DNA from: a virus
IMG/VR virus record: IMGVR_UViG_3300050821_001042
Span: 1 to 29,543 of that record
Strand: one strand, 5' to 3'
Length of the DNA stretch: 29,543 nt
In this document: in pieces, positions 11,510 through 29,008 of the stretch
How positions within the stretch are numbered: position 1 is the first letter of the stretch
How the letters are laid out: every line of letters begins with the position of its first letter
Position numbers and translations under genes: made by a program
Notes under the pieces: generated by a model
Seen by the model: only the letters and a program-made list of their open reading frames with translations
What the model was told of the DNA's origin: nothing
Databases searched by the model: none

Positions 11510-13233
11510 TGTGGCGCACGATAGTCGTTCCGAATGCGCCGCCTGTGGTGCAGTCCTTTGACTTCTTCATCTCCACCACTGGGAGTGATTCGAATCCTGG
11601 GACTCTCGTCTCCCCCTGGGCTATCACCTCGATCAATACGAAGCAGGCTACCTATACAGGTAAACGGGTCGGAGTCCTCGCTGGGGTCTACAACGTGAAC
11701 TCCCTCATGGGCTCAGGGAATGCCGGTTCTTTGAATTTGGTGGCTTTGGCTGTCAATGGCGGGACGGTAAGCAATCAGACCTATATAGGGTCTTCCAATG
11801 CTTCCGGGGTCTATACGCCCAGAGTTTCGGTACTGGACGCTCACCCCATACAGAATCCGATCAGCGGGATTACCAATGCTGCCTCTGCGGTAGTGACGAT
11901 CAACTCTGCAGCAGCATCTAATCCTTATACCGGCTTAACACGTGTAGCCATCTACGGGGTGGTGGGGATGCCTCAGATCCAAAGTCCCGACACAGGAACC
12001 GGCTCAATCTGGATGTGGACGATTACCGCTACAGGGGGAGTGCAGAATGCCTGGACGATCACTCTCAATGCCAATAGCACTTCTTGGGGGACCTATGTGA
12101 GTGGTGGGACTGCTTCAGCAAACTTCCCTAGTGGGGAATGCGGGATCATCGGTCAAGGACTAGCAAATGGGGGCGGCTCTCTCCAGGCCAATCCAGGTTA
12201 CACCACGCTAGATGGTTTAGTGATCACTGGTAGCTATGAGATGGGAATCGGGTTCAGACCCGATACAGCGAGTGGTCAGGGAGGAGACAGTTTCGGGATC
12301 ATCATCCAGAACTGTGAGATTTGTGACATCGCAGGTTACGAGAACGACAATACCTCGGGTGTCCTTCTCTGGAACGTCACCGGAGCTACGGTTCACGGAA
12401 ACAAGATCCATCACATCATCTCGACCTCGGGGAATGTGAGCCAGCAGGACAATGCAGCGATCTTCTCATTCAACTGCAAGTCCAACGTCTATGAGTACAA
12501 CACCATATTCGCCTCCTCTGTCGGCATCTATGACAAGAACGCCACCAATGGGAATCACACTTATCGGTATAACTACATCGAGCAGACGACCGATACCTCT
12601 AGGGTGGCTTTCGGTCCCTATGCTTTGTACTGCATCAACGACAGTGCGGGGGGAAGCTCAACAGATGTAATGAACGTCCATCACAACGTCTTCATTGCAC
12701 CGGATACCTGGCAGGGATCGAATTCATTCAATGATCCCTCTTTGGCAGGACTGACCTTCTACAACAATACCTGTTACTGGACGGGGGCCTTCAATTCAGG
12801 TGGTTTGTGGTATCCCGCCAATGGTTCGGGAACCGCTGTGATCAACTCCTACAATAACATCTTCGATTGTGCGGGAGCGCCGAATTACCAGGGATTCGTC
12901 TATTACACGACGGGGAGTATTTCACTCTCTGATTACAATGCTTATTCAGGGAGTGGGGCTTCTTTCTGTATCGGTGCGATCAGTGGGGGTTTCACTCCCA
13001 CGAACACTTACACTTTCGCGAACTGGCAATCGACTATCGGTGTCGATGCTCATTCGGTCATAGGCAGTCCGACCTTCAATAGCACCTCATCGCTCAATAC
13101 CTCCGGTTTCAAGCTTACCAATGGGACGACCGGACAGGGGACCGGATCGAGCAATGGGACGAGTGGAGGAACGGCTTGTGATATGGGTGCGTGGGGCAAT
13201 AGTCCTCCCTCCACCATCGGGTGCAACTTTTGA
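11509..13233 (+). CDS. Parallel beta-helix tailspike-like adhesin
   Basis: This 574-aa protein starts in a TGATG overlap with the portal. The N-terminal block FDFFISTTGSDSNPGT (residues 17-32) is the opening seen in DUF1565/pectate-lyase-like right-handed beta-helix proteins. The centre is full of Asn/Gly-rich short strands typical of helix coils, such as GIIIQNCEICDIAGYEN, GATVHGNKIHHI and NVHHNVFIAP. The C-terminus is Gly/Ser/Thr-rich (TNGTTGQGTGSSNGTSGG). Such proteins bind or cleave surface polysaccharide; I cannot assign catalytic residues. It has no signal peptide, consistent with a virion protein. There is no obvious podophage head-binding domain, so it may attach through a partner. 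Confidence 0.8.
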   Translation: MWRTIVVPNAPPVVQSFDFFISTTGSDSNPGTLVSPWAITSINTKQATYTGKRVGVLAGVYNVNSLMGSGNAGSLNLVALAVNGGTVSNQTYIGSSNASGVYTPRVSVLDAHPIQNPISGITNAASAVVTINSAAASNPYTGLTRVAIYGVVGMPQIQSPDTGTGSIWMWTITATGGVQNAWTITLNANSTSWGTYVSGGTASANFPSGECGIIGQGLANGGGSLQANPGYTTLDGLVITGSYEMGIGFRPDTASGQGGDSFGIIIQNCEICDIAGYENDNTSGVLLWNVTGATVHGNKIHHIISTSGNVSQQDNAAIFSFNCKSNVYEYNTIFASSVGIYDKNATNGNHTYRYNYIEQTTDTSRVAFGPYALYCINDSAGGSSTDVMNVHHNVFIAPDTWQGSNSFNDPSLAGLTFYNNTCYWTGAFNSGGLWYPANGSGTAVINSYNNIFDCAGAPNYQGFVYYTTGSISLSDYNAYSGSGASFCIGAISGGFTPTNTYTFANWQSTIGVDAHSVIGSPTFNSTSSLNTSGFKLTNGTTGQGTGSSNGTSGGTACDMGAWGNSPPSTIGCNF

Positions 13234-13847
13234 CCACCAAGACCTCAAGCTTTCCCAATAGCCAGAACCCTCTCGCTTCCTCAGGAGCGGATGGGGCGTG
13301 GATCGCTTGGGGGACTACTAACCTCAAAGCCACTGCCGGAAGCGGGGTGAATGCGGTTTCAGGGTCTTTCGCCGCGATGGTCTGGAACACCTCCGATTAC
13401 ACTTTTCTCGCAGACGGGCAGACATCGAGCGCAACCATCGGAGCTAAGGGTAACTTCGACGATGTGGGGGCATCGGTTCTCTGTACAGGTTCTGGGGCTA
13501 CGGCAAACGGGTATTACGCCTCTACAGGTTTTAGCGGGAACTCCATTTTCATCAATCGTGTAGATAGTGGAACAGCAACCCAGCTGACCAGCGGCTCCCA
13601 CACCTGGGCACTGAATGATGTGCTGAAGCTCAGTTACACCCTGAGCACTCACACCCTCGCAGCAGCAGTAAACGGCTCGACGATCATCTCTACGACTGAT
13701 TCCACCTATACCTCAGGTCAACCAGGACTTTGGTATACGGACGGCAACGTGAACGCGAGTTTCATATCGGTTTTTACGGGAACCGATCCTTTCGTAGCTG
13801 CAACTTCCAGCGGTCCACTCCCACGCCAGATCTATGTAATGCCGTGA
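13221..13847 (+). CDS. LamG/concanavalin-like domain protein
   Basis: The start is GTG 13221 or, more economically, TTG 13230, which shares TTGA with the previous stop. The 208-aa protein is one jelly-roll-like domain. Its strand pattern includes GSFAAMVWNTSDYTFLADG (residues 48-66), GYYASTGFSGNSIFINRVDSG (97-117), DVLKLSYTLSTHTLAAAVNG and a final TSGQPGLWYTDG, the classic end of LamG-type folds. It probably binds carbohydrate on the cell surface, or decorates the virion. It lies directly after the beta-helix gene with overlapping ends, so the two may work as one adhesin complex. The function is inferred from the fold. Confidence 0.7.
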   Translation: MQLLTTKTSSFPNSQNPLASSGADGAWIAWGTTNLKATAGSGVNAVSGSFAAMVWNTSDYTFLADGQTSSATIGAKGNFDDVGASVLCTGSGATANGYYASTGFSGNSIFINRVDSGTATQLTSGSHTWALNDVLKLSYTLSTHTLAAAVNGSTIISTTDSTYTSGQPGLWYTDGNVNASFISVFTGTDPFVAATSSGPLPRQIYVMP

Positions 13848-13872
13848 CGGACATATTGAAGGATTCTCATAC

Positions 13873-14088
13873 ATGAGACATCTACAGCAAACATTGAGGT
13901 ATACGGACCGCTCAGATGAGATAGCGGCTATTACCCATATCCTTGACCTGATGAGGGAGAAGGACTTCGATGTTGCCGCGAGACTCCTGGTGATCTATCT
14001 CGATGCGCTCCAGGATGCCCAGAAGCCGAAGCTGGAGGACTACGATCCTCGTGCAGAGCTAGCCGCACTGGCTGAGAGACTGCGATGA
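13873..14088 (+). CDS. Small helical protein, 71 aa
   Basis: GAAGGA lies about 10 nt upstream of ATG 13873. The protein begins MRHLQQTLRYTDRSDEIAAI, then THILDLMREKDFDVAARLLVIYL (residues 22-44) and EDYDPRAELAALAERLR. It is all-helical by pattern, acidic and compact. The stop overlaps the next ATG as ATGA. No family is recognised, and its role in this adhesin block is unknown. Confidence 0.7.
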   Translation: MRHLQQTLRYTDRSDEIAAITHILDLMREKDFDVAARLLVIYLDALQDAQKPKLEDYDPRAELAALAERLR

Positions 14089-14291
14089 CAATTCCTGACT
14101 ACCCGCGAAGATGGATAGGTCTCCATTTAAGCCTTAAGGATTGGTCTTTAAGGTGGGGCTTTATACGTCACGGAGGAGATGGAGTTGGGGGGTTTTCAGT
14201 GTTTTGGCTGAATTTTGGTTTAACGGTGACATATCTGGAGAAGGGTGCTGTTCTTCGTAAGGTCGCGAGTCCTTATCAGAGAGGACCATGA
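14085..14291 (+). CDS. Small conserved phage protein, 68 aa
   Basis: It starts in an ATGA overlap and ends in another with the next gene. The protein begins MTIPDYPRRWIGLHLSLKDW and continues WGFIRHGGDGVGGFSVFWLNFG (residues 24-45), then TVTYLEKGAV. The GGxGGFSVFWxxFG pattern is one I have seen in small phage proteins, without a function. It is rich in Trp, Gly and Phe and could associate with a membrane, but no clean transmembrane helix is present. Confidence 0.7.
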   Translation: MTIPDYPRRWIGLHLSLKDWSLRWGFIRHGGDGVGGFSVFWLNFGLTVTYLEKGAVLRKVASPYQRGP

Positions 14292-14614
14292 AGGGCGAAG
14301 GCTATTTCATCAACCGCTTTACAGGTGATTCCCGCCCAGATGAAGCGGGAATAATGACCTGTGCGCATTGTAGTAAAGTCCTGTATCTGCATGACGTTCC
14401 CGGTCAACCGAACTGGAAGGAAGACGGCGGATGGTGCAGGAGCGAGCAGAAGCCTTTATGCGGGCCTTGTGCAGACAGGGCTTTGAAATACGGTTGTGAG
14501 CCTGCCCTTAAACGGATAGAGGCCCACGGCGAGGCATTAGTGAAGTACGAACAGTATTTGAAGGTTGCAGGGCTTGAACCGGCTAAGCCTGCAACTCTTA
14601 TCTTGCCGGACTGA
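14288..14614 (+). CDS. Zinc-finger-like phage protein, 108 aa
   Basis: This gene starts in an ATGA overlap. The N-terminus MKGEGYFINRFTGDSRPDEA leads to a Cys-rich site: CAHC (C25, C28), C50 in GGWCRSE, and CGPC (C58, C61). That gives two CxxC pairs plus one extra Cys, as in a treble-clef zinc finger. The C-terminal half is helical (ALKRIEAHGEALVKYEQYL). I recognise the opening and the CAHC motif from other phages but know no function. It may bind nucleic acid or serve as a structural zinc module. Confidence 0.78.
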   Translation: MKGEGYFINRFTGDSRPDEAGIMTCAHCSKVLYLHDVPGQPNWKEDGGWCRSEQKPLCGPCADRALKYGCEPALKRIEAHGEALVKYEQYLKVAGLEPAKPATLILPD

Positions 14615-14624
14615 AGAGGTTTTT

Positions 14625-15092
14625 ATGGCTCAATTTACAGGTGTACAGCGTGGGGTCGCCGGAACGGCTTCAGGCACGCAGTTGAACAACGGAACCCTTA
14701 CCGTGTTGACGGTCGGTATGCTCTCGAAGGTGAAGATGGTCTCGTGGGGTGGGTCGGATACCTCATTGGTGGCCTATGCCACTCGGTGGGCGAGGGTATC
14801 GAATACTCCTGCGACCCCAACAGCACTCACTATCCAGAACAGCAATCCCAATACAACCGCGATGGCGAGCTATAACACCTATAGCACGACTCCCACTTCT
14901 ACAGCCTCTCCTGCCGGACTTTTGTCGGTGGACTGGAACAGCCAGGGTGGGGGTGGAACGATTGTCCTCCCGATTGGTGGAGAGTGGTTCGTAGTCGGTG
15001 GGGCTTTGGGGACACTTTTTAACCAGATTGGATGCGGTAACGTGGTCGGGGCGAGCGCGAACACGTCGTTCAGCACGACGTGGGAGGAATAG
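14625..15092 (+). CDS. Hypothetical beta-rich protein, possible fibre or decoration component
   Basis: I choose ATG 14625 because GAAGAGG lies 5 nt before it; the in-frame extension back to 14565 lies within the zinc-finger gene. The 155-aa protein begins MAQFTGVQRGVAGTASGTQL, has strands NGTLTVLTVGMLSKVKMVSW (residues 22-41) and ends GGTIVLPIGGEWFVVGGALG, then NTSFSTTWEE. It has a Thr/Ser/Asn-rich middle. The composition suits a small virion beta protein. It is followed by a hairpin and an HNH gene that may be an insertion between it and the tailspike. Confidence 0.68.
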   Translation: MAQFTGVQRGVAGTASGTQLNNGTLTVLTVGMLSKVKMVSWGGSDTSLVAYATRWARVSNTPATPTALTIQNSNPNTTAMASYNTYSTTPTSTASPAGLLSVDWNSQGGGGTIVLPIGGEWFVVGGALGTLFNQIGCGNVVGASANTSFSTTWEE

Positions 15093-15123
15093 TCTTCCTA
15101 ATACTCAGTAGATGGAGTAATAT

Positions 15124-15149
15124 AAGACCTCCTGAAACGAGGAGGTTTT
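15124..15149 (+). promoter_or_regulatory. Terminator-like hairpin burying the HNH gene ribosome site
   Basis: AAGACCTCCT (15124-15133), loop GAAACG, AGGAGGTTTT (15140-15149): ten pairs with one G-U, ending at the base before ATG 15150. The perfect AGGAGG ribosome site is fully paired. The GC stem plus TTTT also has the outline of an intrinsic terminator, so the element could limit both read-through and translation. Confidence 0.7.
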
Positions 15150-15647
15150 ATGACTTCACATGCTGAGTACATGAGGAAATGGCGCACTGAGAATCCCGAA
15201 CGTTGGCGAGAGATTGCTCACAAGGCTCGTGCCAAGTGGAAGCTCAACAATCGCTCCGCTCACCGCGAAGCTCAAAGGAATCATCGTTACACGGTGCGTC
15301 GCGAGATTCTGGATCTTCTCGGTGGTCAGAGGTGTGTGCAGTGCGGATACGATAAAGACTGGCGCGCTTTGCAGATAGACCACATTCATTCTGATGGTCG
15401 TAATGACCGTAATACCCCAACTGGAACGGGTGTATGGGCATTTCGCAAGAAGTTGATGGATCCCACTCAATTAGAGTTCGCACGGACTCGTTATCAAGTT
15501 CTCTGTGCGAACTGTAATGTCGTAAAGAAGTATGAGAAGAATGAGTTTGGAGGACGCATGGCTAAAGTATCCCCGGATAAACTTCGCAGGCGTCGGACTC
15601 GTAAGCAGCGTGAGGAAATCCCCACTATAGAATCAGGATTTAGCTAA
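15150..15647 (+). CDS. HNH endonuclease, likely free-standing homing type
   Basis: This 165-aa protein has a helical, basic N-terminus (EYMRKWRTENPERWREIAHK, residues 6-25) of the kind that binds DNA. The HNH core follows: structural C62 and C65 (RCVQCG), LQIDHIHSDG (75-84) with catalytic-type D77-H78, and VLCANCN (117-123) with C119, C122 and metal-binding Asn. The tail is strongly basic (KLRRRRTRKQRE). The overall form matches phage HNH enzymes common as free-standing homing endonucleases. It fits exactly between the neighbouring genes: its TAA directly precedes the tailspike ATG. The buried ribosome site upstream recalls the regulation of phage T4 I-TevI. Confidence 0.88.
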   Translation: MTSHAEYMRKWRTENPERWREIAHKARAKWKLNNRSAHREAQRNHRYTVRREILDLLGGQRCVQCGYDKDWRALQIDHIHSDGRNDRNTPTGTGVWAFRKKLMDPTQLEFARTRYQVLCANCNVVKKYEKNEFGGRMAKVSPDKLRRRRTRKQREEIPTIESGFS

Positions 15648-18332
15648 ATGGCTATAGGCCCGGTTCCGCCTTACGTTACAGGCGGACCTCTTCAGTTAGA
15701 TTTCCTGCAGCCAGTCGGGGATCGGATTCAATTCCGGTCCCCGATTTCCTCTCCTGATCTCATTCAACTGATCAATGTCGGGTCTTCACCGGGGGATCAG
15801 ACGGGAGACCCTGGAAGATTAGCTTGGCAGAAAGCCAATCTTGATTTCACTATTCTCGATAAGCGGACCAATCTTTATGCGGGTCCTACAGCCAGTGAAC
15901 TGGCTGGAAATGTTCCCATCATCAATCCTCAATATGCCCCTGGGGATATCTTAAGGTATGGGGCTGATCTCACTGGAACTAACGATTCCAGCCAAGCAAT
16001 CATCAATGCGCTGAGGTCAATCCCTTCAGGTGGGGGGAACGAGGGTGGAAGGGTTTTCTGCAGTCAGGGCGGGATCATTACTGTAAACGCCTTGGTGCAA
16101 CTGGATGCTTATAGTGCTTACAGCGACTGGACTTTGGATTTTACCGGAGTAGAGATTCATACCACTCTCACCTCTGGCAATATCTTCCAGTTAGGTGATG
16201 CGACAGTTAAGGACCCTGCACAGAACTTCATCTGGAGAGGTGGGTATTTCCATCTTTCCGGCAATAACGTTACCGCGATAGCGGTCTACCGTTGCCAGAA
16301 CATCAAGTTTGAGAATGTATGGGTCTTCAACGCTCTCAACTCATTCAAGGTAGATGGAACCATCTGCGCTCCAAATGGGAGGATCATCTCTGTCAAATTT
16401 GATAACTGTTATTCCGGGCAAGCGACTATTGGTTACTACTTCAATGCCCAGAATCCTCAGACTGGTAGCTACACCGGCATCAAGATGGATACCTGTGCGT
16501 CGGAATCCGATGCGACTGGTATCAGTTATCAAGGATTCCCCAGTCAGTCCTTCGCGACACTGCACATGGATAACTGCGAGGTGCAGAACTCCACAGTTGC
16601 CGGGGTTATCGCTAATCAATGTTTGATAGAGATCAACTCCGGCTTCGCCCAAACTTCCAGCCCCACGACAGTTCCTTCGATCAACGCTCAGAACGGTGCC
16701 GTTGTCCATGTAAGGAACGGCGACTGGGGCTATCCGGTTATTGATGCCAGCTCGTTTGTCTGGTTCGACCAAGGAACCGCTAATGAGCTGATTAATACTT
16801 CTTCAACCTCTCGTCTTTCCGGTGGAGCGTTGGGAGACTTGGACTCTGTGGGGTGGGGGCCACCCAACTACCCCACCGGCAAGACCGGGCATCACGCTCT
16901 ACTCGGCTATCAGTGGCGCGACAGCATGGGGGTGGATTGGGTCTGTACCGTGGCGGGGCAGACAGGTGGCTCATCTCCTTTCGTCAAGTACATGCCGCTG
17001 AATGATCCGTGCGAGATCATCATCCCCTGTGCCATCGGAGGAAACATCGCGAACGGAGCGTTGCTCTGGTTTCCACAAATGGATTTTATAGTAGAGGAGG
17101 TTCTGTTCCTCGTCACTACAGCATTCACAGGTGCTAGTGGGGTTTTGAGTTTCAGTGCTGGGACGGTCAATCAACAGGGACTTATCTCTCAAGATGCCGA
17201 CCAGGGAGCTGTCGCTAATCTCACGCTCGGGAAACTCGTCACCAGCAGACGCAACAGGAACTCATTAGCACAGCTGACTGGCGGGAATACCCTCTTCTGG
17301 TCTGGCAACGAATACAACGCCACTTCCGGCACGGTCGGGGTGAATGGGATCTATAGCATCACAAGCTCCATGACCGCAGGAGCTGGCCGTCTCATCATCC
17401 GTGGCTATCGACCGAGAGTGACGACTGCGGGGGCCGCCCTCTCAGGTGCGGTTCTTCCGTCGTTCACGCAATCCCCTGGTTCCACCACGCAGGTTCTCTA
17501 TAACAACGGAGGAGCAGTAGCTGGAGCCTCGGGGCTTACTTATGGCGCAAATGGCAACGTTGCGATTGCTGACCCCTCATCCGGGAACTCACTAACTGTC
17601 AGTGCAACAGGCTCTCACGTTGGAGTCTTAGTACAGGCCGCTTCTGGCACTAACGCTATTCAAGGAGGGTCGTCCGGCAACAACATTGGCATAGGGACCA
17701 ATGTTGGTCTGAGTGGATCGGCTGAGAACATCTATGGACAATCAGCCGCGCCTTTGGCAATAGGGACCACTGGAGCACAGAGCCTCAACCTCTATACAAA
17801 TAGTGCCCTGCGCGTATCGATCAACAGCACTGGTGATATCACGGGCAGGGGTATTGCGGTTTGCAAACGTGCGACTGCTATCGAGACGCGCTCCTCTACC
17901 ACGACGCTCACGAATAGCACTCAGTTGACCTATGCCATCCCGGCGGCAGGCACGTATGCATTCGAGATCGTAGTCTTTTCCTACTTCACCACGGCCGTTA
18001 CGGATGGGATCACGGCCAATGTCAATTACAGTGGTACGTTCACAGCGGTCGGCTCCTACCTATATGGAGACCTGATGAATGGTACAACCACAACGTTAGG
18101 GATTCAGCCGGTAGAGATTTCAGCGACCGTGAACAATGCTCTGGCAGGTCTTACGATGGCGACTTATGGGGCTTCTGTGGCGGCTGCAACTCCAGCCGCG
18201 CATTTCATTAAAGGGAATCTCATTGCGACCGGGACTGGTACGTTGGCCTTTGCCTTTGCCCAGAGTACGTCAGGGGTCGATACGACTAATTTAGGCGTAG
18301 GCTCCTGGATGACGGTCACTCAGCTTAGCTAA
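15648..18332 (+). CDS. Tailspike with pectate-lyase-like beta-helix
   Basis: The 894-aa protein starts directly after the HNH stop. Residues 1-95 are an N-terminal module with GPVPPYVTGGPLQLDFLQPV (4-23), probably for attachment. Residues 101-122 (ILRYGADLTGTNDSSQAIIN and following) match the start of pectate-lyase-3-type right-handed beta-helices in phage spikes. Beta-helix coils continue to about 390, such as GYFHLSGNNVTAIAVYRCQN and IKMDTCASESDATGISYQG. Residues 395-620 form a beta domain including a WRDSMGVDWVCTVAGQTG block. The rest is Gly/Ser/Thr-rich strands ending in a compact C-terminal domain (about 745-894). It probably recognises or degrades surface glycans; catalytic residues cannot be read by eye. 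Confidence 0.82.
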   Translation: MAIGPVPPYVTGGPLQLDFLQPVGDRIQFRSPISSPDLIQLINVGSSPGDQTGDPGRLAWQKANLDFTILDKRTNLYAGPTASELAGNVPIINPQYAPGDILRYGADLTGTNDSSQAIINALRSIPSGGGNEGGRVFCSQGGIITVNALVQLDAYSAYSDWTLDFTGVEIHTTLTSGNIFQLGDATVKDPAQNFIWRGGYFHLSGNNVTAIAVYRCQNIKFENVWVFNALNSFKVDGTICAPNGRIISVKFDNCYSGQATIGYYFNAQNPQTGSYTGIKMDTCASESDATGISYQGFPSQSFATLHMDNCEVQNSTVAGVIANQCLIEINSGFAQTSSPTTVPSINAQNGAVVHVRNGDWGYPVIDASSFVWFDQGTANELINTSSTSRLSGGALGDLDSVGWGPPNYPTGKTGHHALLGYQWRDSMGVDWVCTVAGQTGGSSPFVKYMPLNDPCEIIIPCAIGGNIANGALLWFPQMDFIVEEVLFLVTTAFTGASGVLSFSAGTVNQQGLISQDADQGAVANLTLGKLVTSRRNRNSLAQLTGGNTLFWSGNEYNATSGTVGVNGIYSITSSMTAGAGRLIIRGYRPRVTTAGAALSGAVLPSFTQSPGSTTQVLYNNGGAVAGASGLTYGANGNVAIADPSSGNSLTVSATGSHVGVLVQAASGTNAIQGGSSGNNIGIGTNVGLSGSAENIYGQSAAPLAIGTTGAQSLNLYTNSALRVSINSTGDITGRGIAVCKRATAIETRSSTTTLTNSTQLTYAIPAAGTYAFEIVVFSYFTTAVTDGITANVNYSGTFTAVGSYLYGDLMNGTTTTLGIQPVEISATVNNALAGLTMATYGASVAAATPAAHFIKGNLIATGTGTLAFAFAQSTSGVDTTNLGVGSWMTVTQLS

Positions 18333-20020
18333 TGAACCTTTGGACCGCAGATGCCTCCGGCTTAACCAACGCTGCAGGTCCAGTCAATGCAGATGATGGG
18401 AATTGGACCGCAGATGGCTTCATAGCGGCTGGGGTCAGACAGAGGAACGTCACAAATCCTGAGTTCGATGCTCGGATGTCGGGTTATGCCGTCATCATTG
18501 CATCCGCCCTCGCCGCTCAATTTGTCCCCATAGCGGACATCCAGTTCGGTTCCCATGCGGAGGCGGTCTATAACCTGGAGGGGCAGAAGAGCCAGACCTG
18601 GAGTTCGGTCAGGGCCTCTCTCCCTCCAGTCACAATCCCGTATGTCGTCGTAGGTCAGCAGACCTATACAGATATCGGGTCGGTGTATGTAAAGCCTCTC
18701 ACAGGCCATACACCGCCGATCATCCCTTACCAATATGCGGCCCCGGAGCTAAGGGACCTCACCCAGCAGGCGGTATTGAGTCAGCCGTGGCACGGTCCAC
18801 AGGGACCTGTTCCGCCTTATATAACCGCTTACCCGGTCGATACCAGCCAGCTCCAGGCCCAGTACACCCCAGTACAACCGAAAGCGGGGGTAGGAGTTCT
18901 CGGGTCAGTCGTCATTACGACTCCTCAGATCGAGGATCGACCAAGCGAGGTTATTAGACCCTCACAAGTCTCCGGGAGCACTCCTGCCGTTCCCCCTTAT
19001 GTGCAGGCATCCCAGACCGATACCTCACAGCTACAGCCGCAATATAGCCCTGTAGCGACTCCTGCCGTTCTCCTCACGGGGATTCTCGGAAGGTATCAGG
19101 TCACTCTTCCTCAGATAGAGGATAGACCGGTTGAACAGACCTGGTTTGTCCAGTCCGGAATTGAAGCGGCTGGGGCTCTCTCAAGCTATCAGTTCGGGGT
19201 CCACGCCGAGGCTCTATACAACGCTGAAGCCCTAAAGAGTCAGGTCTGGCCGACTGTCAGTGCGCCAGCGCTTCTAACCGGAGCCATTGTCCAGTATCAG
19301 TCTGGCGAACCTCAGGATTGGCCTTGGCAGGAAAGGGAGCAGTTCTACCGAATCACGATAGCGGGGAGCCTGCCCAATATAGGTCCTGTCCCGCCTTACT
19401 CGTTTGTCACTCCCCAGATTGACCTTAACGTCAATGCCACGAGGGTTTCCAGCTCGGCTTTCCAGACGTTTACAGGGATAGTACTGCCTTATCTCTCCGT
19501 CCTCCCGCAGCCTGATATCAATATCAATTACTCGGTAACCTGGACGCCGAGTGTCTTCAGTCAGCCAGTAATAGCGCCTTCACTCGATCCGTGGCCGGTT
19601 CACTGGCCGATGCCGCCGGTCAGCCAGGCGCAGCTCAAGAAGTACATCGAACAGCAACGGAGAATGGCGAATCGTCGGGCCCGGCAGATAGCCGCTCAGG
19701 TCCGATATGACGAGGAGTTAAGGGAAGACCTTAGAAAGGCCTTGAGGCGGGAAATCCCGATAGAGGCCCTTAAAGTCACTGCTAAACCTCTCCCAAAGAG
19801 TGAAGTGAACTGGGAAGAGGTCAAATACATAGCGGCGAGACTTCTTGAGAAACCGCTTAAGACCGTTCAAGCACTCCAAGCTATTCAAATCGAGGCTCCG
19901 AAGATCGACCCGGATGAAGGTGATTTGGGCGAATTGAATGAGTTACAGTCGCTCTATGCTCATGACTTCTACGAGCGATTAGACGCTCTCAGGCGCCTGA
20001 TTAGAAAGAAGTTGAACTGA
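18332..20020 (+). CDS. Proline-rich repeat protein with basic helical C-terminus
   Basis: The ATG overlaps the tailspike TAA (TAATG). The 562-aa protein begins MNLWTADASGLTNAAGPVNA and has PPY-centred beta-like modules: IPYVV (102-106), IIPYQ (130-134), GPVPPY (158-163), AVPPY (219-223), GPVPPY (351-356) and VLPYLS (384-389). Two stretches, 158-217 and 218-277, are clear tandem copies. FGSHAEAVYNLEGQKSQTW (72-90) recurs as FGVHAEALYNAEALKSQVW (288-306). From about 432 it becomes a charged helical, coiled-coil-like domain (QLKKYIEQQRRMANRRARQI). I do not recognise the family. The GPVPPY motif shared with the spike N-terminus suggests a virion linker or spike-docking role. Confidence 0.7.
   Translation: MNLWTADASGLTNAAGPVNADDGNWTADGFIAAGVRQRNVTNPEFDARMSGYAVIIASALAAQFVPIADIQFGSHAEAVYNLEGQKSQTWSSVRASLPPVTIPYVVVGQQTYTDIGSVYVKPLTGHTPPIIPYQYAAPELRDLTQQAVLSQPWHGPQGPVPPYITAYPVDTSQLQAQYTPVQPKAGVGVLGSVVITTPQIEDRPSEVIRPSQVSGSTPAVPPYVQASQTDTSQLQPQYSPVATPAVLLTGILGRYQVTLPQIEDRPVEQTWFVQSGIEAAGALSSYQFGVHAEALYNAEALKSQVWPTVSAPALLTGAIVQYQSGEPQDWPWQEREQFYRITIAGSLPNIGPVPPYSFVTPQIDLNVNATRVSSSAFQTFTGIVLPYLSVLPQPDININYSVTWTPSVFSQPVIAPSLDPWPVHWPMPPVSQAQLKKYIEQQRRMANRRARQIAAQVRYDEELREDLRKALRREIPIEALKVTAKPLPKSEVNWEEVKYIAARLLEKPLKTVQALQAIQIEAPKIDPDEGDLGELNELQSLYAHDFYERLDALRRLIRKKLN
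18803..19162 (+). repeat. Two tandem 60-residue protein repeats
   Basis: Residues 158-217 and 218-277 of the 562-aa protein align without gaps. Shared elements are VPPY, DTSQLQxQYxPV, a G-rich strand turn, and TPQIEDRP versus LPQIEDRP. The DNA copies have diverged considerably, so the duplication is not recent. Confidence 0.8.
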
Positions 20021-21428: not shown

Positions 21429-22412
21429 ATGGCACTAATTAATCCTAGTGCCACGGTGACGGAAATCGTCACAACTACCCTCCGTAACAGAACGGGGAAG
21501 TTGGCCGATAACGTTACAAAGAACAACGCTCTCCTCTACAGGTTGAGAGCGCGTGGCCGTGTAAAGCCCGTTTCGGGCGGACGCACGATTGTTCAGGAGC
21601 TGAACTACCAGGAGAACCAGACCTATAAACGGTACTCCGGGTACGAAGCACTCGATATCAGCCCCTCGGATGTGTTCACTGGCGCGGAGTTCAACTACGC
21701 CCAGGCAGCCGTAGCGGTTTCCATCTCAGGTCTCGAAATGCTGCAGAACAGCGGCGAAGAGGCCATCATCGACCTGCTCGAAGGTCGCATCGAGAACGCC
21801 GAACAGACGCTCACAAACAATATCGCTCTCGATATCTATTCCACGGGACTTGCGGATGGCGGGCGGCAGATAGGAGGCATCCAGCTCCTGGTCTCCACCA
21901 CGCCAACCACAGGGGTTGTGGGAGGTATCGACTCTTCCGTTTGGAGTTTCTGGCGCAATGTCGCGTTCTCAGGTGTCACGAATGGCGGGGCCGCTGTCTC
22001 GACAGCTAACATCCAGTCCTATATGAACAGGGTCTGGGTGCAGTTGGTTCGCGGAGCGGATCACCCCGACCTGATCGTGGCGGATAACAACTACTATCGG
22101 TTCTTCTGGGAATCGATGCAGGCCCTGCAGAGGGTGGGAGACGAGGAGTTGGCAGACCTCGGCTTTACCACCTTGCAGTATGTGAATTCGGACGTAGTAC
22201 TGGACGGAGGGTTCGGTGGTGGAGCACCTGCGAACACCATGTATTTCCTCAATACCAAGTACCTCTTTTTCCGTCCGCATCAGGACCGTAACTTCGCCCC
22301 CTTGGGCGATGAGCGGTTCGCAGTCAACCAGGACGCTATGGTGAAATTGATCGGCTTTGCGGGTAATCTGACCTGCGCCAATCGGTTCCTCCAGGGCGTG
22401 CTGGCGGCATAA
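21429..22412 (+). CDS. Major capsid protein, HK97 fold
   Basis: This 327-aa protein matches a podophage capsid family I recognise by its N-terminal TTLRNRTGKLADNVTKNNAL (residues 16-35), then VKPVSGGRTIVQELNYQENQ and YSGYEALDISPSDVFTGAEF. QAAVAVSISGLEMLQNSGEE (97-116) and the spine-helix region with NAEQTLTNNIALDIYSTG (129-146) follow. IGGIQLLVSTTPTTGVVGG and the C-terminal VNQDAMVKLIGFAGNLTCANR complete the pattern. AAGGAAC lies 6 nt upstream. It forms the icosahedral shell with the scaffold encoded just before. Length is normal for this family. Confidence 0.94.
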   Translation: MALINPSATVTEIVTTTLRNRTGKLADNVTKNNALLYRLRARGRVKPVSGGRTIVQELNYQENQTYKRYSGYEALDISPSDVFTGAEFNYAQAAVAVSISGLEMLQNSGEEAIIDLLEGRIENAEQTLTNNIALDIYSTGLADGGRQIGGIQLLVSTTPTTGVVGGIDSSVWSFWRNVAFSGVTNGGAAVSTANIQSYMNRVWVQLVRGADHPDLIVADNNYYRFFWESMQALQRVGDEELADLGFTTLQYVNSDVVLDGGFGGGAPANTMYFLNTKYLFFRPHQDRNFAPLGDERFAVNQDAMVKLIGFAGNLTCANRFLQGVLAA

Positions 22413-22422
22413 GGAGAACGCC

Positions 22423-23133
22423 ATGGGTAAAATCTACGTTAAGGCGACTCCTTCCTCTGTATTTGCAGCGGTGCAGACCTATACGTGGTCTTCCATCGAT
22501 CCGCAGATCGGGGGTGTCTATGACATCGGAAACGTGTGGACGGATGCACCCGGCCCTTATGCCGGAATGCTCACAAATTTCACACTTCCCGATAAAACCC
22601 AGACCGGCACTCTGACCTCTGCCGTTCTTCCCAATCCCATTTATGCCCCACAACCGGGATACATCATCTCGGCGTGGGAGCCTTCTTTGGGGTGGGGAGA
22701 GTTCATCGAACTGGCGGTGCCTAAGTCTGCGGCTATCCCGGTGGGAACAATCGTTACGTGGGATGCGGCTTACAACGCCGTCGCTTATGGAACGACCAAA
22801 CTTCTGGGACAGCCGGTAGCGGTATCGGTGGCCTCGGCGACCATTTCCAGTGGTAACCCGGTCACTGATCCACTGGGTGGAGGATTGGCATCCAACTCGA
22901 CGAACGTCATGTATACGTGGTTCCAGCTGACAGGCAGAGCCTGGACGCTCAAGACCGCGGTGCAGGTCACGCCGAACGTGCCGATCTTCGTCTCAGGTAC
23001 TGCAGGACGATTCAAAGTCCTGACTTCCGTCGGTGCTCAGTTCCTCGGAGCGAGGGCCGCGACTGCTACGACTACCAGTACGCAGTCTCTCGGTATCGTG
23101 CTCTGGAACCGTTCAGTCTCGGAAGGCGCGTAA
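22423..23133 (+). CDS. Head accessory / decoration-like protein
   Basis: This 236-aa protein lies 10 nt after the capsid gene, with GGAG 8 nt before the ATG. It is strand-rich: QTYTWSSIDPQIGGVYDIGN (residues 18-37), GYIISAWEPSLGWGEFIELA, and AIPVGTIVTWDAAYNAVAYG, followed by LLGQPVAVSVAS. Proteins of this appearance often follow the major capsid gene in related podophages, where they are presumed head decoration or capsid-stabilising proteins. That role is from position and composition; I cannot name a proven homologue. Its TAA overlaps the ATG of the glycosyltransferase-type gene, so the two are probably translated together. Confidence 0.72.
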   Translation: MGKIYVKATPSSVFAAVQTYTWSSIDPQIGGVYDIGNVWTDAPGPYAGMLTNFTLPDKTQTGTLTSAVLPNPIYAPQPGYIISAWEPSLGWGEFIELAVPKSAAIPVGTIVTWDAAYNAVAYGTTKLLGQPVAVSVASATISSGNPVTDPLGGGLASNSTNVMYTWFQLTGRAWTLKTAVQVTPNVPIFVSGTAGRFKVLTSVGAQFLGARAATATTTSTQSLGIVLWNRSVSEGA

Positions 23134-25097
23134 TGCTGAACGTCGCTTGTGTTAAATGGGGGAAAATGTACTCCTCGGAGTACGTCAATATCCTATTTGA
23201 CTCAGTGCGACGGAACCTCGCCTACGGAGTGGTAGGGAGGTTTGTTTGCTTCACAGATGACCCTGAGGGGTTGGAGGCGGGGATTGAAACCCGCCTCCTC
23301 CCTGAAGGGCTGAAGGGTTGGTGGAATAAGCTCTATCTCTTCTCAGCGGAAGCTTTCTCTGATGGAGATCGGGTTCTTTACTTCGATCTAGATACGGTCA
23401 TTACTGGTCCGTTGGACGCAATAGCCGATTACCGCGGACCTTTCGCTATCCTAAGAGATGCTTATAGGCTTGATGGATTGCAGTCCTCTGTGCTGGCTTG
23501 GGAAGCAGGGAATTGGACTCGACTGCTCTGGGAGCGTTGGCCAGATTACAAACATCTTCCCTGGCCGGGTGGAGATCAGCAGTACATTGAGGTTCAGATT
23601 TTTGGTAGTTCTGGGCTATTTACTTATGAGAAGTGGCAGAACAGTTTCCCCGGTAGGTTCTGTTCGTACAAGGTACAGGCTAGGAATGAGATCCCTAAGG
23701 GGTGCTCGGTTGTATTCTTCCACGGGGACCCAAGACCTCATGAGGTGAAGGACGGCTGGGTTCCCCATGTATGGAAGGTAGGGGGGGGGTCGGGGGCAGA
23801 GTTTATCGTTCAGTCGAACGTGAGTAATGAGCGGCTGGAATGGAATGTCGCTCTTTCGTTGAAGTCCTGTAAAACCTGGCTCAAGAAAGAGCCCGGACAC
23901 TCAGGCGTTGCAGTGATTGTAGGCGGAGGACCCTCCTTAAAGGATCATCTCTTCCGTGTCCGCGGTCGGCAGATGGCGAAAGCCAAAGTCTTTGCCTGTG
24001 GCAACTCGGCGAACTACTTGCTTGAGAATCAGATTACCCCTGACTATCAGGTATTACTCGATGCCCGGGCAGAGAATGCCTCCTTTGTCGTGGGTGACCC
24101 CACGGTTAAGTTCATTGCTTCCCAGTGTGACCCGAGGACGTGGAAGAAAGGCGGAATTGGCTTTCACGCGATGCAGACTTCCTATATGCATCTCGTGGAG
24201 AATGAGGAGATGCTGGTCGGGGGAGGGTCCACGGTAGGTTTGAAGGCCATTGCGGTGGCTTATGCTTTGGGCTTCCGGAACTTTCATCTCTTTGGGTTAG
24301 ATTCCTCCTATTCCGAAGACTCTCATCATGCTTATCCTCAGTCCCTGAACGATAAGGAACGGCGGATGGAGGTGAAGTGTGGGGAGAAGACTTTCACCTG
24401 TGCACCTTGGATGGTGACACAGGCGGAGGAGTTCAAAGAGCTCGCCCGGGTCCTCGTTGAGATGGGCTGTACTTTCAGCATTCACGGGGAGGGGTTGATC
24501 CCGAGCATTGCATCAGCTTTAGAGGTTCCTTTGGTTGCTGCGGACACCCGTGCGCACGAGATCCTGAAGCATTTGAACGGCCAGAAGGATCCTGTAGGTG
24601 TAGAGGTAGGGGTATTCGCAGGAGCCCTCTCAGTCAGACTTCTCTCTCATCCTAAGTTGACCCTCCATATGGTGGACTCCTGGACGAGTGAGGGAGTCAC
24701 TCAAGAGCAAATCGACGCAGGAGACTTCCACGCCAAACTCTCCCAGGCTCAGCAGGATCACCTCTATAGCTCTACCAAGGAAACGATAGCTTTTGCTGGT
24801 GAACGGGCAAGAGTCATCCGTGCCGATAGTGTGAAGGCTGCGAGTGAGTTCGAGGACGAGTCAGTTGATTTCGTCTTCATCGATGCGAATCATCTCTATG
24901 AGGCGGTGAAAGAGGATATCGAGGCCTGGTGGCCGAAAGTGAGGCCGGGAGGCTTCCTCTCAGGTCACGATTATGAGAATCCCGAATACCCTCTCTGGGG
25001 GGTCAAACGCGCTGTAGATGAGCGATTCGGGAAGAAAGTCACGTTAGGTGAGAATTTTTGCTGGTTTGTCCACAAAGCAGGTAATTATGAACACTGA
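23133..25097 (+). CDS. Three-domain protein: glycosyltransferase, DUF115-like, SAM methyltransferase
   Basis: I choose ATG 23133 (TAATG junction); a 72-residue upstream extension is only a shadow of the previous gene. The product is 654 aa. Residues 1-205 look like a GT-A glycosyltransferase with the DxD motif VLYFDLDTVITG (81-92, D85 and D87) and VFFHGDPRPHEV. Residues 250-450 resemble DUF115 (MptE/6-hydroxymethylpterin pyrophosphokinase-like), with GVAVIVGGGPSLKDH (258-272) and HLFGLDSSYSEDSHHAYP. Residues 480-654 are a class I methyltransferase with VGVEVGVFAG (488-497), HMVDSW, and DFVFIDANHLYEAVKEDI (579-596), then PGGFLSGHDY. It sits inside the head operon, so transfer of sugar to virion proteins with methyl capping is a reasonable inference. 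Sugar and target are unknown. Confidence 0.85.
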   Translation: MLNVACVKWGKMYSSEYVNILFDSVRRNLAYGVVGRFVCFTDDPEGLEAGIETRLLPEGLKGWWNKLYLFSAEAFSDGDRVLYFDLDTVITGPLDAIADYRGPFAILRDAYRLDGLQSSVLAWEAGNWTRLLWERWPDYKHLPWPGGDQQYIEVQIFGSSGLFTYEKWQNSFPGRFCSYKVQARNEIPKGCSVVFFHGDPRPHEVKDGWVPHVWKVGGGSGAEFIVQSNVSNERLEWNVALSLKSCKTWLKKEPGHSGVAVIVGGGPSLKDHLFRVRGRQMAKAKVFACGNSANYLLENQITPDYQVLLDARAENASFVVGDPTVKFIASQCDPRTWKKGGIGFHAMQTSYMHLVENEEMLVGGGSTVGLKAIAVAYALGFRNFHLFGLDSSYSEDSHHAYPQSLNDKERRMEVKCGEKTFTCAPWMVTQAEEFKELARVLVEMGCTFSIHGEGLIPSIASALEVPLVAADTRAHEILKHLNGQKDPVGVEVGVFAGALSVRLLSHPKLTLHMVDSWTSEGVTQEQIDAGDFHAKLSQAQQDHLYSSTKETIAFAGERARVIRADSVKAASEFEDESVDFVFIDANHLYEAVKEDIEAWWPKVRPGGFLSGHDYENPEYPLWGVKRAVDERFGKKVTLGENFCWFVHKAGNYEH

Positions 25098-25914: not shown

Positions 25915-26880
25915 ATGTCTCTACTGTCTTTAGTACAGCAGGCCTTCGGGGAAATCGGGCTCACCCCTCCGACGAGCATTGTCAACAATACAGATTCCAA
26001 CGTCATCAAAGCTCTCTACCTAGCCAATCGGGCCGGAGTTGAGTTAAGAGACATCCCGGCGGCAGCGGATTACTGGCCGATTCTGAGAAAGCAGTTTCTC
26101 TTCAATCTAAATGGTATTGGTCCCTTCACGGGGACCTTCACTAAAGGCTCTCCCACCATTACTGGGATCACGGGAACCAATCTCGGTGGAGTATTGGCTA
26201 CCTGGCAGGTGAGTTCCCAGTTCGTGCTGAACGACACGATGGTGCAGAGCGTGAATGTGGGAGGTTCTCAAGTCACGATGACCCAGAACGCCAGTGGGTC
26301 TGGTACAGATACCTTGTTGGCTTTCGGGCAGGAGGCTTATCCCCTCCCCACTGACATCAACTACAACTTCTTCATTCCTCAAACCGGATGGGATAGGAAC
26401 TTTCGCTGGCAGCTCTTAGGTCCAGTAAACGCTCAGGAATGGCAGGTTCTGAAGTCGGGTATCTCTCCCGTAGGACCGAGACTCCGTTACCGGTTGATGG
26501 CGGGGCAGATCTATTTCAATCCAGCTCCCTATGTCCCTGCAGGACAAACTGCACCGATCTCGGACCTCATCGTCATGGAGTATCCGAGTGTCAATTGGGT
26601 AGCGGTAACAGGTGCTCCTACAGTCGGGGTACAGAGTTCATTCCAGCTCGATACCGATACCTCCATCATCCCCGAAGACCTCATTACCATGTCGTTGAAG
26701 TGGAGAGTATTGAAAGCGATTGGTATGGCATGGGCGGATGAATATACGGAGTACAACGATAAGGTTGATATGGTTGCTGGTCGGACCACAATGCCAAGGA
26801 GTCTCCCGCTCAACGCAAGAGCTTCTGGAATCCGACTGCTTAACTCCCAGAATGTGCCTGATACCGGCTTCGGGTCGTAA
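25915..26880 (+). CDS. Head-to-tail connector (P22 gp4-like) protein
   Basis: This 321-aa protein begins with the helical MSLLSLVQQAFGEIGLTPPT and SNVIKALYLANRAGVELRDI (residues 28-47), typical of the adaptor ring under podophage portals. An inserted beta domain (PFTGTFTKGSPTITGITGTN and following) interrupts it. It then returns to EAYPLPTDINYNFFIPQTGW and PRLRYRLMAGQIYFNPAPY, conserved in this family. The C-terminus is helical (MSLKWRVLKAIGMAWADEYTEY). It would close the portal after packaging and hold the tail hub encoded next, with which it shares a TAATG junction. The gp4 label is by layout and gene order. Confidence 0.72.
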   Translation: MSLLSLVQQAFGEIGLTPPTSIVNNTDSNVIKALYLANRAGVELRDIPAAADYWPILRKQFLFNLNGIGPFTGTFTKGSPTITGITGTNLGGVLATWQVSSQFVLNDTMVQSVNVGGSQVTMTQNASGSGTDTLLAFGQEAYPLPTDINYNFFIPQTGWDRNFRWQLLGPVNAQEWQVLKSGISPVGPRLRYRLMAGQIYFNPAPYVPAGQTAPISDLIVMEYPSVNWVAVTGAPTVGVQSSFQLDTDTSIIPEDLITMSLKWRVLKAIGMAWADEYTEYNDKVDMVAGRTTMPRSLPLNARASGIRLLNSQNVPDTGFGS

Positions 26881-28523
26881 TGCGTGCTTCTGCTTTACGT
26901 CAGTTAGCTAAGCAACAGGCCCAACTCCCGCAGGCTCAAGGCTATTCTGTCCCCGCTCCGGTTGGGGGTTTGAACGTTCGGGACGCTCTGGCAAATATGC
27001 CGGAGACAGATGCGATCATTCTCGATAACTGGTTCCCGCAACCCACTTGGGTGGAAGTGAGGGGAGGAACGAAGAAACTCGCCACCTTTACCGGGATTTC
27101 CCATACGGTGGCCTCTTACAACGCTCTCACTGGAACGAACCTCCTCTTTGCTGCTGCTATAAATGCCGGTACTGGCTCTCTCTACCGGGTAGACAATTCG
27201 GCCGGGGGGCCTGGCACATTAGTGGTCGGTGGTGCTGGGCCTCTCATTCAGGCCATTACCGGGGATCAGTACGACTGGTCACAGTTCGGGACCGGAGCGG
27301 CAGAAATCCTCTATCTCGTGAATGGTCTTGATAGCCCGCTTCTCTACGATGGGACCAATTGGCAGGGAGTCACCTCATCGAGTGCCCCTTATGCAATGAC
27401 TGGTGGACCTTCAGCGGATAATCATTCGCTCAACCAAGTCGTCCGCTATAAAAACCGTCTCTGGTTCGTGCAGGCGAACTCGTTCAACGTCTATTACCTC
27501 CCTCAAAACGTCTTTGCCGGGGCTCTGACCCTTCTCAATATGGGTCCTAATTTCAATCAGGGTGGATATCTCGCAGCCATAGCAACGAACTCCATCGACA
27601 ATGCGGCAGGATTCTCCGACTACATTGCCTTTATCTCCAACCAGGGAGAGGTGGTGATGTACCAGGGTTACGACCCTGGGAGTGTCTCGACCTGGTATGA
27701 AACCGGGCACTTCCAGATAGGTCGTCCTCTAGCAATAGGACGAAGGACTTGGACGAAGATCGGGACTGATGCGGTGGTCCTTTGTGTCGATGGAGCAGTC
27801 CCTCTCTCAAAGGCAATGGTGAGTGATCGCTCTCAACCATTGATCGCTTTGACAGACAAGATCCGCAAAGGGATCAAAGATGCCGCTTCTAACTATGGAA
27901 CTGTGTATGGCTGGCAGCTCCTTCTCTACCCTGGAGGGACTAAGCTGGTTGTTAACGTTCCCACCCAGGTGAATACAGCTAGCTTCCAGTATGTCCAGAA
28001 CACGATTTCCGGTGCCTGGTGCTCTTTTGGGCTCTACAACAGTCCGTGGAATGCCATTTGCTTCGAGAGGATGGGGGACAATCTCTACTACACGACCAGC
28101 GGAGCTGTTTTCCAGTGCGATACCGGACAATCTGATAACGGGTTGGGGATAACCATTCGTGCTAAACCGGCGTTCAGTTACCTGAACGACCGGGAACACC
28201 TGAAGATCTTCACCCAGTGTCAGCCCATCTTCCAGGTGACGGGAAGCGCGACGTTCTCGGTGAACCTCAATGTGGATTTCTCAAGCTCCGCCCCTACCAG
28301 CACGATTCCGGTCTCCTCAGGGAATGCTACTCAATGGGGTTCCCCTTGGGGGTCTCCGTGGGGAGATGCCACACAGATAGTAAAACCTTGGATCGGGTTA
28401 GACGACACGGGTTACTGCATGAGTATGCAGTTACAAACCTCCGTGCTTAATATCGGGATCGAATGGCAGGCGACCAATTACCTCTATAAGACAGGAGGTC
28501 TTTTCTACGGGATACGGGGATGA
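26880..28523 (+). CDS. Tail hub/stabilisation (P22 gp10-like) protein
   Basis: This 547-aa protein follows the connector gene as in P22-like tail machines. After a helical start (LRQLAKQQAQLPQAQ) come PAPVGGLNVRDALANMPETD (residues 26-45) and AIILDNWFPQPTWVEVRGG (46-64), a signature I recognise in podophage hub proteins. Then come repeated beta-propeller-like blades: LLFAAAINAGTGSLYRVD, EILYLVNGLDSPLLYDG, RLWFVQANSFNVYYLP, and VVMYQGYDPG with VLCVDGAVPLSKAM. The C-terminus is a beta domain ending YKTGGLFYGIRG. Its likely role is a hexameric nozzle that links connector and spikes. It overlaps the acetyltransferase gene by ATGA. Confidence 0.8.
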   Translation: MRASALRQLAKQQAQLPQAQGYSVPAPVGGLNVRDALANMPETDAIILDNWFPQPTWVEVRGGTKKLATFTGISHTVASYNALTGTNLLFAAAINAGTGSLYRVDNSAGGPGTLVVGGAGPLIQAITGDQYDWSQFGTGAAEILYLVNGLDSPLLYDGTNWQGVTSSSAPYAMTGGPSADNHSLNQVVRYKNRLWFVQANSFNVYYLPQNVFAGALTLLNMGPNFNQGGYLAAIATNSIDNAAGFSDYIAFISNQGEVVMYQGYDPGSVSTWYETGHFQIGRPLAIGRRTWTKIGTDAVVLCVDGAVPLSKAMVSDRSQPLIALTDKIRKGIKDAASNYGTVYGWQLLLYPGGTKLVVNVPTQVNTASFQYVQNTISGAWCSFGLYNSPWNAICFERMGDNLYYTTSGAVFQCDTGQSDNGLGITIRAKPAFSYLNDREHLKIFTQCQPIFQVTGSATFSVNLNVDFSSSAPTSTIPVSSGNATQWGSPWGSPWGDATQIVKPWIGLDDTGYCMSMQLQTSVLNIGIEWQATNYLYKTGGLFYGIRG

Positions 28524-29008
28524 GGAAGATTCTCGCCAATCAGGACGAAATGGTTGCCCAGTGGGTGGCATCCAGAATCCCCATCTTTGAATTCGGCTCC
28601 AGCCCCTATACGGCAATAGGCTTGATGAGTGACGGAGTCATGTTAGCCGGGGTGGTCTATCAGAACTACACCCGAATCGATATCCAAATGCATACTGCCG
28701 CTGTAGAGGGTTCTAAATGGCTCACGAGTAAGTTCCTCGGAGAGGTGTTCAGGTATCCTTTCGAGCAGTTGCAGGTTCATCGGGTGACGGCTTTGATCCC
28801 GGCTTTGAATACCCGGTCGGAGAAGTTTTGCAAGCACCTCGGCTTCAAGAAAGAGGGCCGGGTGAGAGAGATTCTCCCCCAAGGGGAAGATTTACTCGTT
28901 TACGGTATGCTTAAACGGGAATGCAGGTTCCTCAACATAGGACGGTTCAATGGGCTCGCCAACAGGTTTCCTGAGAAATCCCTCTCCAATACAGCAACAG
29001 CCCTATAG
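28520..29008 (+). CDS. GNAT-family N-acetyltransferase-like protein
   Basis: This 162-aa protein starts in an ATGA overlap with the tail hub. The best match is the GNAT C-terminal half: FEQLQVHRVTALIPALNTRS (residues 81-100), then EKFCKHLGFKKEGRVREILP (101-120) and DLLVYGMLKREC. This is the usual motif A/B arrangement with the conserved N-x-x-S and GF-x-x-EG. The Q/RxxGxA acetyl-CoA loop is not clear, so the enzyme may be divergent. GNAT-like genes often sit beside tail genes in podophages, where their substrate is unknown. The last 20 residues overlap the next gene. Confidence 0.8.
   Translation: MRKILANQDEMVAQWVASRIPIFEFGSSPYTAIGLMSDGVMLAGVVYQNYTRIDIQMHTAAVEGSKWLTSKFLGEVFRYPFEQLQVHRVTALIPALNTRSEKFCKHLGFKKEGRVREILPQGEDLLVYGMLKRECRFLNIGRFNGLANRFPEKSLSNTATAL

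What the first reader, a model, noticed from the sequence alone, without database searches (positions are those of the whole stretch)
23133..25097. Glycosyltransferase, DUF115-like and methyltransferase domains fused in the head operon
Three domains normally found in surface-glycan or flagellin-glycan pathways are joined in one 654-aa protein. The gene overlaps that of a head accessory protein and sits between capsid and connector. Some phages are known to glycosylate their virions with enzymes encoded near structural genes. A fusion that adds and caps a sugar on capsid or decoration proteins would be a self-contained virion-modification system and could hide particles from antibodies or host defences.
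Basis: partly seen in the sequence, partly recalled or inferred. Interest (0 to 1): 0.75.

Follow-up and report, generated by a model that had tools for sequence, protein, structure and literature searches.

The report
Phage capsid-decoration glycosylating fusion enzyme
This virus of bacteria carries one enzyme made of two sugar-attaching parts and a methyl-adding part, encoded right beside the knob protein that studs its shell; relatives keep enzyme and knob protein together, so the virus probably sugar-coats its own particles, which is known in only a few phages and by other enzymes.

Summary
Window 23133-25097 encodes a 654-aa protein with three domains: a GT8-type glycosyltransferase (residues 1-219), a DUF115/Maf central domain (231-462; best solved match is the flagellin glycosyltransferase Maf, Z 22.7) and a sugar-O-methyltransferase-like domain (about 466-650). 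Catalytic motifs are kept in 37 diverged relatives. The window is an Mx8-like podophage. The gene is an insertion between the capsid decoration gene (22423-23133, homologous to Mx8 p49; cement-protein fold, Z about 10) and the neck genes. All 79 further IMG/VR loci found by the protein have it in this slot. Domains are reshuffled there: FkbM instead of the MT, separate MT genes, hexapeptide transferases, or TPR-glycosyltransferases. No phage among 50,697 GenBank records covers 80% of it. New here: at equal capsid distance, the decoration protein tracks presence of the enzyme (effect 0.104, z 9.6; other neighbours 0.001-0.021) and is richer in Ser/Thr (+4.7 points after GC correction; other proteins show no significant change). 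Best reading: cytoplasmic O-glycosylation plus methyl-capping of the decoration protein (0.68). Donor sugar, order of steps and any protective role are unknown; 'self-contained' is not supported. New variant of a known kind (virion glycosylation).

The parts
23133..25097 (+). GT8 - Maf/DUF115 - methyltransferase fusion, 654 aa
23133..23789 (+). domain 1 (residues 1-219): GT8-type GT-A glycosyltransferase
   Evidence: phrog_1962 E 4e-28; LgtC 1g9r Z 17.7, rmsd 3.0, 204 aligned; glycogenin and GlyE about Z 17
23385..23393 (+). DxD motif (Asp85-Leu86-Asp87)
   Evidence: D85 and L86 invariant, D87 in 34 of 37
23823..24518 (+). domain 2 (residues 231-462): DUF115 / Maf central domain
   Evidence: PF01973 E 1.3e-20; 5mu5 Maf Z 22.7, rmsd 3.2, 219 aligned; profile E 4e-11
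24528..25082 (+). domain 3 (about residues 466-650): SAM methyltransferase resembling sugar O-methyltransferases
   Evidence: PF13578 E 8.6e-20; MeT1 6g80 Z 17.0; Foldseek MeT1 8e-8, CalS11 3e-7, MycF 3e-6
22423..23133 (+). capsid decoration (cement) protein, 236 aa; proposed acceptor
   Evidence: homologue of Mx8 p49, 'major virion structural protein'; phrog_29386 in 45 of 52 relatives; cement fold, Z about 10
21429..22412 (+). major capsid protein
   Evidence: phrog_9953 E 9e-129; 61% identity to Bradyrhizobium phage ppBjS10J-1
25087..25914 (+). p50 homologue; flanks the slot downstream (ORF listed from 25048, probable start ATG 25087)
25915..26880 (+). p51 homologue: adaptor / tail-tube-like protein
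   Evidence: PF24175 E 1.7e-4; phrog_6013 E 5e-36

Best explanation
The gene encodes a soluble three-domain enzyme, made with the head proteins, that O-glycosylates Ser/Thr of the newly made capsid decoration protein encoded directly upstream, before or during assembly, so mature heads carry a short methylated glycan. Most likely order: (1) the Maf-like domain links a first sugar to Ser/Thr, possibly a CMP-activated acidic sugar such as CMP-Kdo, which Gram-negative hosts make; (2) the GT8 domain adds a hexose from a UDP-sugar; (3) the methyltransferase caps the glycan from SAM. Shown: domains, kept catalytic motifs, fixed slot, co-inheritance with and Ser/Thr enrichment of the decoration protein. 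Inferred: activity, acceptor, donor, order, benefit.
For: Domains. Motifs kept in 37 relatives: D85-L-D87, GGDQ, FHGxP, GGGPS, HAY, E491-x-G493, D515, D584, H587, HD613. Slot: MCP, decoration, [fusion], p50, p51 in all 79 new IMG/VR loci, while seven GenBank Mx8-like records have no DUF115 gene anywhere. Co-inheritance at equal capsid distance: decoration protein 0.104 (z 9.6) versus p50 0.004, scaffold 0.001, p51 0.017, p52 0.021. Ser+Thr 21.1% versus 14.9% (P 4e-10); +4.7 points, t 7.3 after GC correction, with MCP, p50, p51, p52 at t 1.4 or less. The slot changes state at least 8 times on the capsid tree, and in 7 independent pairs the Ser/Thr-dense trait went the same way 4.5 times, the opposite way 0. 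Other phages put unrelated protein-glycosyltransferase architectures there: TPR-GT resembling OGT/FlmG. Related MT or GT+MT genes lie in head operons of phages with other capsid families. No membrane helix predicted. Maf enzymes glycosylate Ser/Thr of flagellin and can use CMP-Kdo (PMC11339370).
Against: No biochemistry or mass data. Co-inheritance of adjacent genes can also come from exchange as one block. p51 and p52 show small effects too. The tree-based test is underpowered (P 0.06), and in it MCP Ser/Thr also leaned the same way (3.9 to 0.1). The C-terminal Ser/Thr cluster first seen is not exclusive to enzyme-bearing phages. Some enzyme-free relatives have Ser/Thr-rich decoration-position proteins (L084, L088). 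pTM is 0.57, so domain packing is uncertain.
Confidence: 0.68

Rival explanations
1. The enzyme glycosylates another virion protein (capsid, adaptor, tail or spike), or several; the decoration protein is only a neighbour.
For: p51 and p52 co-inheritance is small but above zero; repetitive spike/fibre-like proteins occur in the same operon.
Against: Effects are five-fold or more smaller than for the decoration protein; no GC-corrected Ser/Thr shift in MCP, p50, p51 or p52; the gene always follows the decoration gene, not the spikes.
Confidence: 0.14
2. It alters host surface glycans (receptor change or superinfection exclusion) like classic lysogenic-conversion glycosyltransferases.
For: Conversion glycosyltransferases are a known phage strategy (cited in PMC12619734); GT8 enzymes such as LgtC act on LPS (established knowledge).
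Against: Fixed place inside the head operon, coupled to the decoration gene; no membrane helix and no flippase partner recognised; co-inheritance with a capsid protein.
Confidence: 0.1
3. Enzyme and decoration gene move as one recombination block by chance of adjacency, with no enzyme-substrate relation.
For: They are adjacent and translationally coupled; label permutation does not fully remove phylogeny.
Against: The equally adjacent downstream gene p50 shows almost no co-inheritance (0.004); Ser/Thr enrichment is not predicted by linkage alone.
Confidence: 0.15
4. The middle domain is a pterin pyrophosphokinase (MptE), as the Pfam name suggests, and the protein is metabolic.
For: Pfam name of PF01973; weak match to solved MptE 8sd5, E 0.0097.
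Against: Maf is the far better match (E 4e-11; Z 22.7); fused to GT8 and a sugar-type MT, in a head operon.
Confidence: 0.03

Closest known systems
Maf flagellin O-glycosyltransferases (PF01973; 5mu5, CbMaf)
   Same: central domain fold and conserved motifs; cytoplasmic Ser/Thr O-glycosylation of a self-assembling surface protein
   Different: Maf's own N- and C-terminal domains are replaced by GT8 and methyltransferase domains; phage head operon; no flagellar context
Virion glycosylation of mycobacteriophages (Freeman et al. 2023, cited in PMC12619734)
   Same: phage-encoded glycosyltransferases acting on the phage's own particles
   Different: there glycans are reported on capsid and tail-tube C-termini; here a different phage group, a Maf-type domain, and a decoration protein as likely acceptor
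GT8 family (LgtC, glycogenin, GlyE)
   Same: GT-A fold, DxD, GGDQ and FHGxP motifs
   Different: one module of a three-domain fusion; donor and acceptor unknown
Sugar O-methyltransferases MeT1, CalS11, MycF
   Same: fold; Asp, His and HD residues aligned with MeT1
   Different: fused to glycosyltransferases; substrate unknown
FlmG (TPR + GT flagellin glycosyltransferase) and OGT
   Same: a similar TPR-GT architecture occupies the same slot in relatives L045 and L049
   Different: not the window's enzyme; shows functional replacement in the slot
Phage P1 PmgQ
   Same: its GT domain is related (28% identity to relative L052)
   Different: only about 35% of the fusion is covered; a P1 gene of untested function

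Membership tests
Maf/DUF115 flagellin glycosyltransferase | PF01973 domain above curated cut-off | tested here: met
   74.3 bits versus 34.6
Maf/DUF115 flagellin glycosyltransferase | Maf central-domain fold | tested here: met
   5mu5 Z 22.7, 219 aligned
Maf/DUF115 flagellin glycosyltransferase | Maf N-terminal domain and FliS-like C-terminal helical domain | tested here: not met
   the 5mu5 alignment covers only 231-462; the rest is GT8 and MT. So it carries a Maf core but is not filed as a Maf
Maf/DUF115 flagellin glycosyltransferase | transfer of a nonulosonic acid or Kdo to Ser/Thr | not testable with these tools
   needs biochemistry
GT8 glycosyltransferase | GT-A fold with DxD, GGDQ and HG motifs | tested here: met
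   Z 17.7 to LgtC; motifs
Sugar O-methyltransferase (Methyltransf_24) | PF13578 with SAM motif and conserved Asp/His | tested here: met
   72 bits versus 26.3; E491, G493, D515, D584, H587, D613 invariant; aligned with MeT1
Sugar O-methyltransferase (Methyltransf_24) | methylates a sugar hydroxyl | not testable with these tools
   fold neighbours only
MptE pterin pyrophosphokinase | closest to solved MptE and in a pterin pathway context | tested here: not met
   Maf match far stronger; no pathway genes recognised in the window
Phage virion glycosylation system | glycosyltransferase gene in the structural region | tested here: met
Phage virion glycosylation system | glycan demonstrated on a virion protein | not testable with these tools
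   sequence record only, no particles
Capsid decoration protein (gene 22423) | cement-protein fold, directly after MCP, virion component in a relative | tested here: met
   Z 10.8 FCWL1, 10.3 TW1; Mx8 p49 homologue

The most novel reading that the evidence does not exclude
A widespread 'capsid glycosylation slot' in Mx8-like podophages: an exchangeable cassette of protein O-glycosyltransferases (Maf-core or TPR-GT) with sugar-capping enzymes, coevolving with the decoration protein it modifies. It would be the first phage use of a Maf-type domain to glycosylate a virion.
Probability: 0.45. Interest if true: 0.8.

Novelty: new variant of a known kind. Interest (0 to 1): 0.64.

Why it matters
Virion glycosylation is documented in few phages and enzyme-target pairs are rarely known. 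Here comparative data name the enzyme, its likely acceptor and a fixed genomic slot across hundreds of uncultivated podophages, and the enzyme resembles flagellin glycosyltransferases. That makes the question directly testable in a two-gene E. coli experiment and offers a compact protein-glycosylation module.

Tried and rejected
A C-terminal Ser/Thr cluster of the decoration protein looked diagnostic of enzyme-bearing phages, but counting it in aligned segments showed enzyme-free relatives with similar counts; the enrichment is protein-wide, so the claim was dropped. S+T differences in MCP and p51 vanished after GC correction. The pterin reading of PF01973 was rejected. A relative elsewhere in enzyme-free phages was sought in 34 records with PF01973: none, but many records are fragments. 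L045, L047 and L049, counted as 'none' by the DUF115 search, in fact carry TPR-GT or TPR genes in the slot; they were not in the homologue-only test. No paper held links DUF115 to phages. The main mycobacteriophage paper (PMC10527164) is not held. Foldseek's viral library was not used.

Full report
What is there. Window 23133-25097 (+) encodes a 654-residue protein. Pfam finds PF01973 (MptE-like/DUF115; 74.3 bits, cut-off 34.6) and PF13578 (Methyltransf_24; 72 bits, cut-off 26.3); PHROGs finds a glycosyltransferase at residues 6-215 (E 4e-28). Its start codon shares one base with the stop of the upstream gene (TAATG). An AlphaFold2 model from 37 relatives has mean pLDDT 89.3, pTM 0.57. Structure comparison assigns residues 1-219 to GT8 enzymes (LgtC Z 17.7), 231-462 to the central domain of the flagellin glycosyltransferase Maf (5mu5, Z 22.7, rmsd 3.2, 219 aligned) and about 441-650 to SAM-dependent O-methyltransferases. 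Foldseek's nearest methyltransferases include the sugar enzymes MeT1, CalS11 and MycF; MeT1 is a 1-O-methyltransferase of methylmannose polysaccharide (PMC9883506).

Catalytic motifs. Across 37 sequences, at 41-57% identity to the window protein, D85, L86, G147-D148-Q149, F196-H197-G198, G265, P267-S268, D310, D390, H399, Y401, E491, G493, D515, D584, H587 and G611-H612-D613 are invariant; D87 is kept in 34 of 37.

The phage. The record is a 29,543-base virus contig. Its capsid protein is 61% identical to that of Bradyrhizobium phage ppBjS10J-1 and about 50% to Myxococcus phages Mx8 and Mx9. In Mx8 the order is MCP, p49 ('major virion structural protein'), p50, p51, p52, p53; in all seven GenBank relatives examined there is no DUF115 gene anywhere in the record. 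The gene is thus an insertion between the p49 and p50 homologues.

The neighbour is a decoration protein. Gene 22423-23133 is homologous to Mx8 p49; 45 of 52 relatives match phrog_29386, a virion structural protein. Its model (pLDDT 79) matches capsid cement proteins of phages FCWL1 (Z 10.8), TW1 (10.3), XM1, T1, Sf11 and Pam3.

A conserved slot with exchangeable enzymes. A profile of the fusion found at least 581 IMG/VR contigs encoding relatives, of which the best 80 were kept. All 79 newly fetched loci have it beside MCP, decoration, p50 or p51 genes in this order. The third domain varies: Methyltransf_24 (window, L008, L038, L052), FkbM methyltransferase (L010, L026, L143, L156), or FkbM as a separate gene (L031). 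Other relatives have MT-DUF115 (L063), DUF115 with a weak glycosyltransferase match plus separate MT and DUF115 genes (L080), hexapeptide acyltransferases beside DUF115 genes (L039, L048, L055), or TPR-glycosyltransferase proteins resembling OGT or the flagellin glycosyltransferase FlmG (L045, L049) (FlmG architecture from PMC7591256). Outside this phage group, a relative of the MT lies after a different type of capsid gene (L004) and a GT+MT gene pair lies between portal and scaffold in a Shinella prophage (L178).

Co-inheritance test. For 85 loci with a homologous decoration protein (59 with the enzyme, 26 without), similarity of each neighbour was regressed on capsid similarity. Same-status pairs exceed different-status pairs by 0.104 for the decoration protein (z 9.6), against 0.004 for p50, 0.001 for scaffold, 0.017 for p51 and 0.021 for p52. 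p50 is the key control, because it is adjacent on the other side. Decoration proteins of enzyme-bearing phages have 21.1% Ser+Thr against 14.9% (P 4e-10); corrected for GC the difference is 4.7 points (t 7.3), with no significant effect in MCP, p50, p51 or p52. On the capsid tree the slot needs at least 14 changes (8 forced by well-supported branches). Seven independent pairs give 4.5 in the expected direction, 0 opposite (P 0.06, underpowered); uncorrected MCP Ser/Thr leans the same way in that test. Sampling caveat: enzyme-bearing loci came mostly from the enzyme search, enzyme-free ones from the capsid search.

Mechanism. The most economical reading is cytoplasmic O-glycosylation of the decoration protein before or during assembly, extension by the GT8 domain and capping by the methyltransferase. 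Maf enzymes attach nonulosonic acids to Ser/Thr and can use CMP-Kdo (PMC11339370). The order of steps and the donors are inference. No sugar-nucleotide gene was recognised in the window, so the system is not self-contained. A role against antibodies or host defences is untested, and nothing here speaks for an animal immune role.

Known versus new. Virion glycosylation is known in mycobacteriophages, with glycans reported on capsid and tail-tube C-termini (Freeman et al. 2023 as cited in PMC12619734). No GenBank phage record covers 80% of this fusion or of a diverged relative, and no held paper joins DUF115, glycosyltransferase and phage. I rate it a new variant of a known kind.

Noticed in passing
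window 11509-20017: About 8.5 kb sits between portal and the zinc-ribbon gene that is absent from close relative L001: two repetitive spike/fibre-like proteins (574 and 894 aa), an HNH/endonuclease VII-like gene (15150-15647) and a 562-aa protein. Other relatives also have extra DNA there (L009, L010).
   Followed up: partly
L045:7055-8446, L047:3440-4879, L049:7873-9327: TPR proteins, two with a weak GT9-like match, resembling OGT or FlmG, occupy the same slot after the capsid/decoration genes.
   Followed up: partly
L178:8001-9208 and L179: Shinella prophages carry GT and MT relatives as separate adjacent genes between portal and scaffold, with an unrelated capsid type.
   Followed up: partly
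L004:6101-8591: A phage with a different capsid family has a TPR protein and an MT 48% identical to the window's MT right after the capsid gene.
   Followed up: partly
L158:5200-8202: A 1000-aa slot protein with two DUF115 stretches.
   Followed up: no
window 28520-29008: A GNAT acetyltransferase (phrog_4470) is kept at the end of the neck cluster in most relatives; its Mx8 homologue by position (p53) is annotated 'potential holin'. A structural or virion-acetylation role is open.
   Followed up: no
window 26880-28523: PHROGs names this family 'amidase', while Mx9 calls the syntenic gene head closure and another relative calls it phage stabilization protein; the PHROG label looks wrong.
   Followed up: no
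window 2612-3226: DNA methyltransferase (phrog_757, E 5e-66) upstream of the packaging genes.
   Followed up: no
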